Assembly (NCBI GenBank): GCA_018902385.1
Contig: JABSSW010000065.1
Span: 84,144-148,143, forward strand
Origin: Physcia stellaris
Lineage: Eukaryota; Ascomycota; Lecanoromycetes; Caliciales; Physciaceae
DNA length: 64,000 bases
Reading direction: 5' to 3'
In this document: piece by piece, positions 32,526 to 36,920 of the stretch
How positions within the stretch are numbered: position 1 is the first letter of the stretch
Layout of the letters: each line of letters starts with the position of its first letter
The notes under the pieces: generated by a model
The model's input: the letters and a program-made list of their open reading frames with translations, nothing else
The model's database searches: none
Told to the model about the DNA's origin: nothing
Position numbers and translations under genes: made by a program

Positions 32526-34038
32526 ATGTATGTCCCGGTTCGCGATATGATAACGCCTTGGCGTAATGATGAGGAACTATCAAAAGTCCAGCGTCAACTT
32601 TTTACAGGGAGGAGGGAAGGCGAGCCCGACGAGCGTGAGGAAGCGTGCAAGTTGGTAACTCATCCCCATGAAGGACAGGACAGGGCTAGTATCTGATATC
32701 ATACTCAACTAGGTCGCGGTATGGCGGATTCGTGGACATCTGCCACACGCAATAGATGCAACAGCATCCTTGACGGAAGCCACTCTTATAGACGAGCGCG
32801 GTACTCTGAGCAACGTCGCAATGCGTCATCTTTATGTGGGTGCATTCTGTCGGTAAGTGTGCGCCTCATCCTTACCTCCCATGTACAAACACTGACTGAT
32901 TAGATTTGTCACCGGTCTACTAGATGATGACAAGCGCTTGCATCGGGATGCCCGCCGAGGGCCTCGCCGGCAAAGATTGTCTATGTTCGAGCGGGCGAAA
33001 CAGCTCAAACTCCCCGCATCGTTGGTCGACCTCCGGCATCAGGCGACTCACGAAGAGCTACCTAGCATGCCTGCGCTCAGACAGTATGTAAAACAAGCAC
33101 TGGACTGGATCTGGAACGACTTTTGGCGCCATCAATGCCCTCCCAACTATACCATGCGCAAAACCACAAATGCCAAAGACTTGAGAAGTGAAGTGGAGCA
33201 CTATCACAAGGTCGCGGTCACTGACATAGGACTGCATGGTGAACCGGTACGTCTTCCCTGCCTATCATCCCCACCTTCGCTATCCCTTGACTCGGAAGAC
33301 AGGACTAGTTACACGATCCTCGGTCGATTATGGGATTGCTGACTCTCGAATGCATGACAGGCACTGAATGATGAATCGGCTAAGACTTGTCTCAATTTGG
33401 TGCGGCTGTGCAAGGGGGACGAAGTAATTCTTAATGAATTATCCATGATCATGATCGAATGGGGCTTCATGGTACAAGATTCAAGCTTCAATGATCTCGG
33501 CAAGCCTATCGATGACACATTTCTTCTCTGGGATCCTCTCATCAAGAAGCTCTGCACGCATCAACAACCGTTTTTCAAGGCACTTACAGATCAGATGTCC
33601 ATCCAGCTCGCTCTACCGTCTGGCCCTATGGACATCAGCCTAGATCGCTACCGCGAGGTCATCACTATGTGGCTTGAGCACCTATTGGCAACTAAACAGT
33701 ATGTACCCATCATCAAGCGAGCCAAATATGACATCAACCACATACTGTCTACGTGCGTCAACTGCCAGAACTACTGGCTGGTGCAGCTTGCGCGCCGCAT
33801 TATAGCCGCACCTGGATACGAGGCTACCAAAAAGAATTACCGAGTACGAGTAGAAAACGCAGTTCCTCATTTGGCTGCTGGCCCAAACCCCGGTACCTTG
33901 CTCAGTACGAATATGGGAATGGGCGATTCTGCAGAGGGCAGAGTAGGGAAAACCAAGGTGAACAAGGAGGAGCTTTACCCAGGGTTTTGGCAGCCTTGCA
34001 ATCCCAAACTGTGGCGACCGGGAATTCACGAGATGTAA
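32526..34038 (+). CDS. LAS1: Las1, HEPN endoribonuclease of pre-rRNA ITS2 processing
   Basis: Cuts ITS2 in the pre-60S particle together with Grc3. Four exons, 32526-32654, 32713-32852, 32904-33246 and 33361-34038, give 429 residues. The N-terminal Las1 domain reads MITPWRNDEELSKVQRQLF, VWRIRGHLPHAIDATASLT, RHLYVGAFCRFVTGLLD, and LPASLVDLRHQATHEELPSM; RHQATH near residue 133 is the RX4H active motif of HEPN RNases. Then YVKQALDWIWNDFW. The C-terminal part is less conserved and ends ELYPGFWQPCNPKLWRPG. Two in-frame ATGs exist (32526 and 32547); the first was used. The stop codon at 34036-34038 lies one base from the TA target site of the outer MITE, so the 3' UTR must run into the element. Confidence 0.9.
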
Positions 34039-34041
34039 ATA

Positions 34042-34831
34042 CAGTAGACCTTCGATACAGGGAGTGGGAATTTCGAAGCCGCGAACTCCTTATAACCCGA
34101 CACTCCTTATAAGCCGTGTCTGCGAAAGTCAGGGTTAAGCTGTAACCCTATGTTTGATAGTGAAACCCTAATAAAATCCTACAGTAGACCTTCGATACAG
34201 GGAGTGGGAATTTCGAAGCCGCGAACTCCTTATAACCCGACACTCCTTATAAGCCGTGTCTGCGAAAGTCAGGGTTAAGCTGTAACTCTATGTTTGATAG
34301 TGAAACCCTAATGAAATCCTAATAATTTTTGACGAAATCTGACAAAACCTATCATAACCCTAATAAAATCTCAAAAAGCCACGCCAAAATCGCGTAATTT
34401 TGATGAATTTTGGTGATTTCTTAGTAGTATTATAAGGAATTTTGCCAAATTTATCGAAGTACTCTCTGTAGACCGAAACTCCGATGCATACATCAAAAAT
34501 CAGAATTTCGACGTTTAACACTTTTTGTAACTCGATACTCCTTGTAACCCGACTCCCTATAACGAAGGTCTACTGTAATAATCTTTGACGAAATCTGACA
34601 AAACCTATCATAACCCTAATAAAATCTCAAAAAGCCACGCCAAAATCGCGTAATTTTGATGAATTTTGGTGATTTCTTAGTAGTATTATAAGGAGTTTTG
34701 CCAAATTTATCGGAGTACTCTCTGTAGGCCGAAATTCCGATGCATACATCAAAAATCAGAATTTCGACGTCTAACACTTTTTGTAACCCGATACTCTTTG
34801 TAACCCGACTCCCTATAACGAAGGTCTACCG
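34042..34831. mobile_element. Outer 394-bp MITE, split by a second copy
   Basis: Outer copy of a non-autonomous DNA element. Left part 34042-34181 (140 bp) and right part 34578-34831 (254 bp) add up to 394 bp. The terminal inverted repeats begin CAGTAGACCTTCG and end with its complement (CGAAGGTCTACCG), about 25 bp with mismatches, and the copy is flanked by TA at 34040-34041 and 34832-34833. TA target sites with CAGTA-type ends point to the pogo/Tc1-mariner superfamily. There is no transposase frame. The inner copy sits at a TA inside this one. Confidence 0.88.
34182..34575. mobile_element. Inner 394-bp MITE, nested in an identical-family copy
   Basis: Complete copy, 394 bp, with the same ends as the outer copy (CAGTAGACCTTCG ... 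CGAAGGTCTACTG), flanked by duplicated TA at 34180-34181 and 34576-34577. Aligned to the outer copy it differs at about 11 of 394 positions, all transitions by my reading. It inserted after the outer one. Confidence 0.9.
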
Positions 34832-34833
34832 TA

Positions 34834-35519: not shown

Positions 35520-36920
35520 ATGGCTAGTCCTGGTCACGAGGCTGCTTTCGTTCAACCGGCTTCCTTTCTCAGACCCCGAGGCACCTCGCAACCAATGACT
35601 CCAGCGGTCCCAGAGAGCGCCCTGGAGCGTGATCAACGCATTGGCCTGGTGAGTCGCTCAACCTGCCCATGTAACGCCGTGTCCAACATCCATCACCTCT
35701 CCTCTTATGCGCCTTGACAAGCCCACCAATCAATCGCGCATCCCTCGCTGACGTAAGACTGCACCCACAGCAACGCATTCGCGAATTCCTCAAAGTCCGC
35801 ACCAGCTACGATGTGCTACCACTGAGTTTCCGATTGATCATCCTCGACACCTCCTTGCTCGTCAAAAAGAGTCTCAGCATCTTGATCCAGAATGGTAGGG
35901 CTGCCCTTGTCAGTGGTCACGGCCGAGAGCTAACCTGCCCTTCTTCCAGGCATCGTTTCGGCGCCCCTCTGGGATTCGAAGACCTCGACATATGCCGGCT
36001 TACTTACGACTGCAGACTACATCAATCTCATCCAATACTACTGGCAGAATCCTGAGGCGGTAAATCGCATCGATCAATTCAAGCTTAACAGACTGAGAGG
36101 TGACATCCCTGCGACGACAGTCCTGGACATGGATCGTTGATTAACTCGGATCCAGATATCGAGAAAGCTATTGGTGTAGCACCACTGGAGACGATTTCGA
36201 TACATCCTCAACGTCCGCTCTACGAAGCATGTCGTCGCATGCTCGAGTCTCGGGCTCGTCGCATTCCTCTTGTAGACATCGACGACGAGACTAGACGTGC
36301 CATGGTTGTTAGCGTGGTCACCCAGTACCGTATCTTGAAATTCGTTGCTGTCAACGTCGGAGAGACCCAATTACTCCGGAAGCCTTTGAAGCACCTCAAG
36401 CTTGGCACCTACAAAAACCTTGAAACGGCCAACATGGAGACGCCGGTCTTCGATATCATTCACCAGCTTGTCAACTGCAACATCTCCGCCGTTCCCATCC
36501 TCAACAGTGATGGTGGGTGCGAGTCCTTCCACGTCGTGAGACTATTTGGCTAATTCGCTAGGGGTCGTGACCAACGTCTTCGAGGCTGTAGACATTATTA
36601 CCTTGATCAAAGGTAATAATTACGATGAATTGAATCTTGACGTTGGCGAAGCGCTCAAGAAGCGAGCTGATGTACGCCTTGCCAATACTTGATTTTGATG
36701 ATGTCAAACTGATAATATGCATCAGGACTTTCCGGGAATCTACACATGCTCAATCAACGATCGCTTAGATATCATCTTCGACACGATAAGAAAGTCGAGG
36801 GTTCATCGACTTATCGTCATTGATGATGAGAGCCGATTAGTTGGTATTCTGAGTTTGAGCGACATCTTGGAGTATATTCTACTCGAGGGCGAATCTGAGG
36901 ACGGTAAGCTAGAGCAGTAG
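35520..36920 (+). CDS. SNF4: AMPK gamma subunit (Snf4)
   Basis: Nucleotide-sensing regulatory subunit of the SNF1/AMPK kinase. Six exons, 35520-35648, 35771-35894, 35950-36099, 36156-36512, 36562-36671 and 36726-36920, give 354 residues, the usual size. Four CBS repeats are seen: CBS1 from IREFLKVRTSYDVLPLSFR through GIVSAPLWDSKTSTYAGL, CBS2 around ISIHPQRPLYEACRRMLESR with RRIPLVDIDDETRRAMVVSV, CBS3 with METPVFDIIHQLVNCNISAV and GVVTNVFEAVDIITL, and CBS4 from CSINDRLDIIFDTIRKSRVH to RLVGILSLSDILEYILL. All intron phases agree. It is a conserved housekeeping gene with nothing odd beyond a first intron of 122 nt. Confidence 0.95.

What the first reader, a model, noticed from the sequence alone, without database searches (positions are those of the whole stretch)
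34042..34831. A MITE nested inside another copy of itself, both 394 bp, each with intact TA duplications
The order left-left-right-right of two sequence blocks is explained exactly by insertion of one 394-bp element at a TA inside a second element of equal length (140 + 254 bp). Both have CAGTAGACCTTCG-type ends and TA flanks, pointing to the pogo/Tc1-mariner superfamily. The inner insertion gives a clear order of events. About 11 of 394 positions differ between the copies, and every difference I see is a transition, which fits cytosine deamination such as repeat-induced point mutation, though the sites are not confined to CpA.
Basis: partly seen in the sequence, partly recalled or inferred. 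Interest (0 to 1): 0.72.

Follow-up and report, generated by a model that had tools for sequence, protein, structure and literature searches.

The report
Self-nested fungal MITE, lightly mutated
A short fungal jumping-gene remnant jumped into a copy of itself just after a housekeeping gene; its few later changes resemble a genome-defence mutation process in this fungus that hits C before C or T rather than the textbook C before A.

Summary
Window 34182-34575 is a 394-bp element inserted at a TA inside a second 394-bp copy (34042-34179 + 34576-34831). Both have TA duplications; 11 of 394 positions differ, all transitions.

Relatives in the same 44-Mb assembly fix the family: a 393-bp sibling on C10, three 2.5-kb elements (C14, C6, C29) with related ends, TA flanks and a DDE_1 (pogo-type) transposase broken by stops, and a fourth (C22) with the MITE's own ends, split by three inserts. 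So this is a pogo-type MITE nested in its sibling, an ordinary kind of event.

Less ordinary is the mutation process. Long copies are hypermutated C-to-T at CpC and CpT and nearly spared at CpA and CpG (C14 to C29: 40/40, 125/160, 25/303, 10/298). In C14 the change stops at the element. It works like RIP with an inverted context preference. Nine of the 11 MITE differences are in that context, and nesting made adjacent 256-bp repeats long enough to trigger RIP in Neurospora. That RIP touched this nest is only weakly supported (p about 0.05).

The parts
34040..34041 (.). TA target-site duplication, left of outer copy
34042..34181 (+). Outer MITE, left 140 bp (last two bases are the TA used by the inner insertion)
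   Evidence: 98.6% to inner
34182..34575 (+). Inner MITE, complete, 394 bp, ends CAGTAGACCTTCG...CGAAGGTCTACTG
   Evidence: 83% full-length match to C10:461624-462016
34576..34577 (.). Second TA of the inner insertion's target duplication
34578..34831 (+). Outer MITE, right 254 bp; adjacent direct repeat of the inner right part (256 bp counting TA)
34832..34833 (.). TA target-site duplication, right of outer copy
32896..34038 (+). Host gene upstream: Las1-domain ORF (32896-33342) and the following long ORF (33397-34038); its stop codon ends 3 bp before the outer MITE. That both ORFs belong to one gene is inferred
   Evidence: Pfam PF04031 E 1.4e-21 on the first ORF, no Pfam family on the second; ORFs
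36104..36917 (+). Next gene downstream: two ORFs with CBS domains (AMPK-gamma-like by recall)
   Evidence: Pfam PF00571 in both ORFs

Best explanation
A 394-bp non-autonomous pogo-type element sat at a TA just 3' of a LAS1-like gene. A second, nearly identical copy was then inserted, by TA-targeted cut-and-paste transposition with transposase supplied in trans, at the TA at positions 139-140 of the first. Shown: the structure, TA duplications, shared ends, a sibling, and DDE_1-bearing long relatives. Inferred: transposase in trans, and that the donor was a nearby or sister-chromatid copy, because a random landing in so small a family is very unlikely. Afterwards the nest, now holding adjacent 256-bp direct repeats, was possibly touched lightly by the same repeat-directed C-to-T process that has stripped CpC and CpT from longer repeats of this genome, a RIP-like process with an unusual CpC/CpT preference. 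That the long repeats examined are hit this way is shown; that it made the changes in this MITE pair is only suggested.
For: Structure and TA. Sibling of 393 bp with TA flanks. Long relatives C14, C6, C29 (2494, 2479, 2472 bp) with TA flanks and DDE_1 inside. The C22 element's right-terminal 40 bp equal the inner MITE's, and its left end agrees for 25 bp; it is split by inserts with direct repeats of 173, 363 and 136 bp at 89-90%. TA on both sides in 8 of 9 elements with both ends located (inner, outer, C10, C21, C14, C6, C29, C22; not C59, whose right end is degenerate). Chance of landing in a given sibling about 1.8e-5 per insertion. Mutation process. MITE pair: 9 of 11 differences at CpC/CpT against 25 of 56 in the background shared with C10, Fisher p 0.045. 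In Neurospora 155 bp of closely positioned homology triggers RIP and 220 bp gives substantial RIP (PMC4858203, passages).
Against: The family is small here (counts are lower bounds). The stretch of the MITE at about 110-216 has no match in the long copies at the sensitivity (C14 and C22 match from 263 on, C6 from 217 on), so a simple internal deletion of these is not shown. CpC is not depleted in either MITE copy (32 and 38 sites; about 29 and 31 expected, by hand). Two of 11 differences go the other way (132 A to G in inner, 393 T to C in outer). Polarisation of 106, 276 and 351 is ambiguous or rests on few copies. The transition excess alone is not significant (p 0.10), nor is the left/right skew of changes (1 vs 8, p 0.07). 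No intact transposase with these ends was seen.
Confidence: 0.88

Rival explanations
1. Tandem or recombination-based duplication made the left-left-right-right order.
For: The direct repeats are exactly adjacent.
Against: A tandem duplication repeats one unit, it does not give left-left-right-right; all junctions fall at TIR ends with duplicated TA; independent single copies with related ends and TA exist.
Confidence: 0.03
2. Assembly artefact: two alleles or loci wrongly joined.
For: G000 is a draft of 147 contigs; no reads were available.
Against: The two copies differ at 11 sites and each has its own TA pair; a mis-join would not place a whole element at a TA inside another.
Confidence: 0.03
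3. The 11 differences are ordinary drift (or divergence of the donor before it jumped), with no RIP.
For: The dispersed 393-bp copy C10 keeps 45 CpC sites and GC 0.425, and both nested copies keep normal CpC; the transition excess alone gives p 0.10; two changes are in the non-RIP direction; MITEs are less affected by RIP in Zymoseptoria (PMC9970103, abstract and passages).
Against: CpC/CpT share 9 of 11 vs 25 of 56 background, p 0.045; 9 of 9 C-to-T changes, counting three weakly polarised ones, at CpC/CpT, p 0.0036.
Confidence: 0.4
4. The C-to-T process at CpC/CpT is UV dipyrimidine damage or an APOBEC-like deaminase, not RIP.
For: CpC and CpT are dipyrimidines (UV signature recalled).
Against: TpC followed by A or G is not depleted (TCA 1.87, TCG 4.75 observed/expected) and hardly mutated from C14 to C29 (TCA 16/164, TCG 7/170). 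In C14 the loss stops at the element: flanks have 112 and 134 CC+GG per kb, the inner 2 kb has 2.
Confidence: 0.03

Closest known systems
Nested MITEs of the same family in maize and rice (Jiang and Wessler 2001) and carrot DcSto
   Same: A short TIR element inserted in another member of its own family; PMC3695323 (passages) says this was common for maize and rice MITEs and reports a probable DcSto-in-DcSto case and a complete DcSto2 in DcSto1
   Different: Here the family is small (two near-identical copies found, one inside the other) and the host mutates repeats; the 2001 paper itself was not held
Fungal pogo-type (Tc1/mariner) elements with DDE_1 transposase
   Same: TA target, short TIRs starting CAGT (CAAT in mutated copies), DDE_1 in the long copies
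   Different: All four long relatives found with such ends have in-frame stops; the one stop-free DDE_1 frame, on C12, lies in an element with other ends
Repeat-induced point mutation (RIP), Neurospora type
   Same: C-to-T change that ends with the repeat (C14), weaker at the repeat's ends, RID-like methylase loci present
   Different: Context is CpC and CpT, not CpA; the Neurospora order is given as CpA>CpT>CpG>CpC (PMC5496416, passage)
CpT-type C-to-T signatures in Magnaporthe, Botrytis, Sclerotinia
   Same: CpT as a target
   Different: There CpA is also a signature (PMC4352252, passages); here CpA is nearly spared and CpC is the strongest target

Membership tests
MITE | Short, non-coding, with terminal inverted repeats | tested here: met
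   394 bp, 29-30-nt arms 86-90% complementary; no ORF of 150 aa or more in it, longest stop-to-stop frames inside the nest 60-69 aa
MITE | Target-site duplication | tested here: met
   TA on both sides of both copies
MITE | Moderate to high copy number (typical, not strictly defining) | tested here: inconclusive
   Two copies at 97%, one full-length sibling at 83%, fragments; the tool calls its counts lower bounds and the assembly is a draft
MITE | Shares ends with a transposase-bearing element | tested here: met
   C22 element: right 40 bp identical, left 25 bp identical; its transposase is broken
pogo-type Tc1/mariner | TA target | tested here: met
   8 of 9 elements with both ends located
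pogo-type Tc1/mariner | DDE_1 transposase in the long relatives | tested here: met
   PF03184 over cut-off inside the C14, C6, C29 and C22 elements
pogo-type Tc1/mariner | Catalytic triad spacing and N-terminal HTH/CENPB domain | not tested
   Frames are broken; not read through
RIP | C-to-T change confined to repeated DNA | tested here: met
   Boundary seen in C14 only: interior 2 CC+GG in 2 kb, flanks 112 and 134 per kb; at C6 and C29 the flanks are depleted too (30, 0, 0, 0), so no test there. LTR-like pairs: 71 transitions, 0 transversions
RIP | CpA preference | tested here: not met
   CpA 25/303 and 9/304, CpC 40/40 and 39/40; hence 'RIP-like'
RIP | RID-type methylase gene | tested here: met
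   Two PF00145 loci with EQT (C5) and EET (C6) in place of ENV, as described for Masc1/Rid; the C6 match is crossed by two TGA, intron or damage not told
RIP | Acts before meiosis in the sexual cycle | not testable with these tools
   Needs crosses

The most novel reading that the evidence does not exclude
This fungus runs a RIP system whose enzyme targets C before a pyrimidine (CpC above CpT, CpA and CpG spared), so standard RIP indices do not see it; and self-nesting is a trap that turns a MITE too short and sparse for RIP into adjacent direct repeats that RIP can see.
Probability: 0.35. Interest if true: 0.72.

Novelty: new variant of a known kind. Interest (0 to 1): 0.5.

Why it matters
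The nest alone is a textbook event. The mutation context is not: a 2025 survey describes RIP-like defences as sharing a CpA preference (PMC12543289, passage), and the usual indices (TpA/ApT, CpA+TpG over ApC+GpT) read as unRIPed here (0.39-0.44 and 1.26-1.49 in C14, C6 and C29). If RID-type enzymes can differ this much in target choice, this genome, with an EQT-type and an EET-type RID-like locus, is a place to ask what sets the context. The nest gives a natural test of the length rule for RIP: the dispersed 0.4-kb copy on C10 keeps its CpC, while nesting creates adjacent repeats of 140 and 256 bp, one below and one above the shortest length (155 bp) reported to trigger RIP in Neurospora.

Tried and rejected
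Idea that the 118-bp multi-copy match to C14 positions 150-270 was 5S rRNA: rejected. Rfam gave no match up to E 0.05 in eight loci, one of them (L053) with that stretch, and the match lies in a repeated element of at least 2.36 kb. The search for the end CAGTAGACCTTCGWTA with 2 mismatches gave 44 hits against 58 for the reversed control, so at that tolerance it is uninformative; only ends with homology or a partner were used. C80:48274 (one mismatch) had no homology. C12, the only stop-free of 10 DDE_1 hits, was considered as helper and rejected on its ends. UV damage rejected. DNA folding of the MITE (z -4.2) was not used; it mostly reflects the TIRs. Rfam found nothing in the window at gathering scores. 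Paper searches for self-inserted MITEs with the terms and for 'CC dinucleotide' gave nothing. I saw no report of CpC-first RIP with CpA spared in searches; this covers only the open library, and of the papers listed there I read passages of some only. Clutterbuck 2011, an older survey (recalled), was not looked up; I met it only as a citation in passages of PMC4352252 and PMC8959702.

Full report
Observation. The inner element is window 34182-34575 (394 bp). The outer element is 34042-34179 plus 34576-34831 (394 bp once one TA is removed). TA lies on both sides of both. The repeat finder sees two adjacent pairs: 140 bp at 99% and 256 bp at 96%. There are 11 differences in 394, all transitions.

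Genome and family. The window is C65:84144-148143 of an unnamed 44.0-Mb assembly in 147 contigs; that it is a filamentous ascomycete is my inference from size and the RID-like loci. The inner MITE finds itself, the two outer halves, a 393-bp full-length sibling on C10 (83%) and partial matches on C22, C6, C59, C29 and C21 (counts are lower bounds). Locating ends shows complete longer elements with TA on both sides: C14 2494 bp, C6 2479 bp, C29 2472 bp, and a 1222-bp element on C21. C59 has a TA only at its left end. A DDE_1 search gave 10 hits; one lies in each of the C6, C29 and C22 elements and two in C14. The C22 element has the MITE's own ends. Its pieces 1-372, 376-1514, 1511-2090 and 2153-2494 are spread over 25.6 kb by three inserts of 8.4, 7.1 and 7.7 kb, with direct repeats of 136, 363 and 173 bp at 89-90%; these look like LTR retroelements, not tested further. 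So the MITE belongs to a pogo-type family whose four long members found are all broken. The one stop-free DDE_1 frame (C12) sits in an element with different ends. The MITE's middle is shared with C10, C59 (68-244) and, at 67%, C21 (1-279); the long copies match it only from 217 (C6) or 263 (C14, C22) on, so the origin of about 110-216 is open.

How the nest arose. All junctions are TIR ends or TA, so transposition is the only economical reading. With TA density counted, a random insertion hits a given sibling with probability about 1.8e-5. In a family with two near-identical copies this points to local or sister-chromatid hopping, or to a formerly larger family; these cannot be told apart here, and the locus was picked for its nest. 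The outer copy starts 3 bp after the stop of an ORF that follows a Las1-domain ORF, so it probably sits in the 3' end of a LAS1-like gene, with CBS-domain ORFs beyond.

The mutation process in long repeats. From C14 to C29, C-to-T changes per available site are CpC 40/40, CpT 125/160, CpA 25/303, CpG 10/298; from C14 to C6 they are 39/40, 90/163, 9/304, 5/298. The 5' neighbour has little effect. Three LTR-like pairs show 71 transitions and no transversions: CpT 55, CpC 13, CpA 3, CpG 0. In held windows under 30% GC (61 windows) observed/expected is CC 0.02, CT 0.25, CA 1.30, CG 3.23; in windows over 46% GC (189) it is 0.97, 1.07, 1.07, 0.89. Of 17 sources, 11 have AT-rich windows (under 35% GC; three of the 11 have only one such window); CC is 0.06 or less in 9 of the 11, the exceptions being L034 (0.56) and L037 (0.23), and CA is above 1.1 in all 11. 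These loci were fetched around transposon hits and are not a random sample. In C14 the change stops at the element: flanks have 112 and 134 CC+GG per kb, the inner 2 kb has 2, and each 250-bp end keeps 20-21; at C6 and C29 the flanks are depleted as well, so they do not test the boundary. A repeat-bounded pattern, strongest inside the repeat, is what RIP does. Stops in the broken transposase frames fit too: over the 9 stop-bearing of 10 DDE_1 hits the listing gives 44 TGA, 3 TAA, 0 TAG (the two C14 hits overlap slightly, and some hits are other families). TGG becomes TGA by CpC change on the other strand, while CpA change would also make TAA and TAG (reasoning from the code). Against: the more diverged C22 pieces compared with C14 show CpT (0.51-0.57) well above CpA and CpG in the two interior pieces, but in the left-end piece CpC (6/20), CpG (10/34) and CpT (8/37) are alike.

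Enzymes. Three loci carry a C5 DNA methylase domain, one of them as two matches. C5 has EQT and C6 has EET in place of ENV, the mark of Masc1/Rid enzymes (PMC6709928, passages); the pieces compared are 40% identical over 167 aa. The C6 match is crossed by two TGA, which may be introns or damage. C3 has ENV and is DIM-2-like by recall only. Only 1.1-1.2 kb of each was read.

Did RIP act on the nest? Polarised with C10 and fragments, C-to-T changes at CpC/CpT are: inner 146, 258, 276, 291, 334, 351 and perhaps 106; outer 298, 360. Opposite: inner 132 (A to G) and outer 393 (T to C). CpC/CpT make 9 of 11 private differences, against 25 of 56 that both copies share versus C10 (p 0.045). All 9 C-to-T changes are at CpC/CpT where 53.5% of sites are (p 0.0036), but 106, 276 and 351 are weakly polarised; the six firm ones would give about 0.02 by hand. 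The right part (adjacent 256-bp repeats) holds 8, the left (140 bp) 1 (p 0.07); transitions against transversions give p 0.10 (all). In Neurospora 155 bp of close homology suffices and 220 bp is substantial (PMC4858203, passages), so right above and left below is the expected direction. But both copies keep normal CpC numbers, so any RIP was slight. I hold this at about one in two.

Known and new. Same-family nesting of MITEs is known in plants (PMC3695323, passages). Weaker RIP on MITEs is known in Zymoseptoria (PMC9970103, abstract and passages; ten MITE families without dinucleotide bias in PMC4522978, passages). CpT signatures are known together with CpA (PMC4352252; PMC2621366; passages). 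PMC7882544 (passage) reports CpT as the dominant form in alignment-based analyses of RIP-capable control fungi, so CpT alone would not be new. PMC8959702 (passage) mentions CpC-to-TpT double changes beside classical CpA change in Monilinia. A 2025 survey says RIP-like defences share a CpA preference, and its main text has no 'CpC' or 'CpT' (PMC12543289, passages). I found no report of CpC-first RIP with CpA spared; unheld papers may have one.

Noticed in passing
G000 C14:105125-107618, C6:981757-984235, C29:39818-42289 (L036, L025, L026): C-to-T hypermutation of repeats at CpC and CpT with CpA and CpG nearly spared; it stops at the element in C14 (C6 and C29 lie in depleted surroundings). A RIP-like process with inverted context that standard RIP indices miss.
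   Followed up: yes
G000 C22:460774-486409 (L065-L067): A 2.5-kb pogo-type element with the MITE's own ends, split by three inserts of 7.1-8.4 kb with LTR-like direct repeats.
   Followed up: partly
L051, L053-L064 (e.g. C98:22981, C53:312433): A repeated element of at least 2.36 kb: 12 of 13 other loci compared match L054 over about 2.4 kb at 94.8-96.0% (L052 does not); GC 0.44 in L054; 10 of 13 copies begin CAAGTAGGCCCGG; shares 118 bp (73%) with the pogo element at 150-270. Kind unknown.
   Followed up: partly
G000 C5:498855-499792, C6:791557-792528, C3:340323-341498 (L070, L069, L071): Two RID-like methylase loci (EQT and EET; the second crossed by two TGA) and one ENV-type methylase in one genome.
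   Followed up: partly
G000 C12, L033:2722-5193: Element with 44-nt inverted ends and a stop-free DDE_1 frame (493 aa open frame), of another pogo-type subfamily.
   Followed up: partly
window 34182-34575, about positions 110-216 of the MITE: Stretch of the MITE without a match in the long copies at the sensitivity, though C10, C59 and C21 share it; it holds ACCCTAAT-type motifs. Origin unexplained.
   Followed up: no
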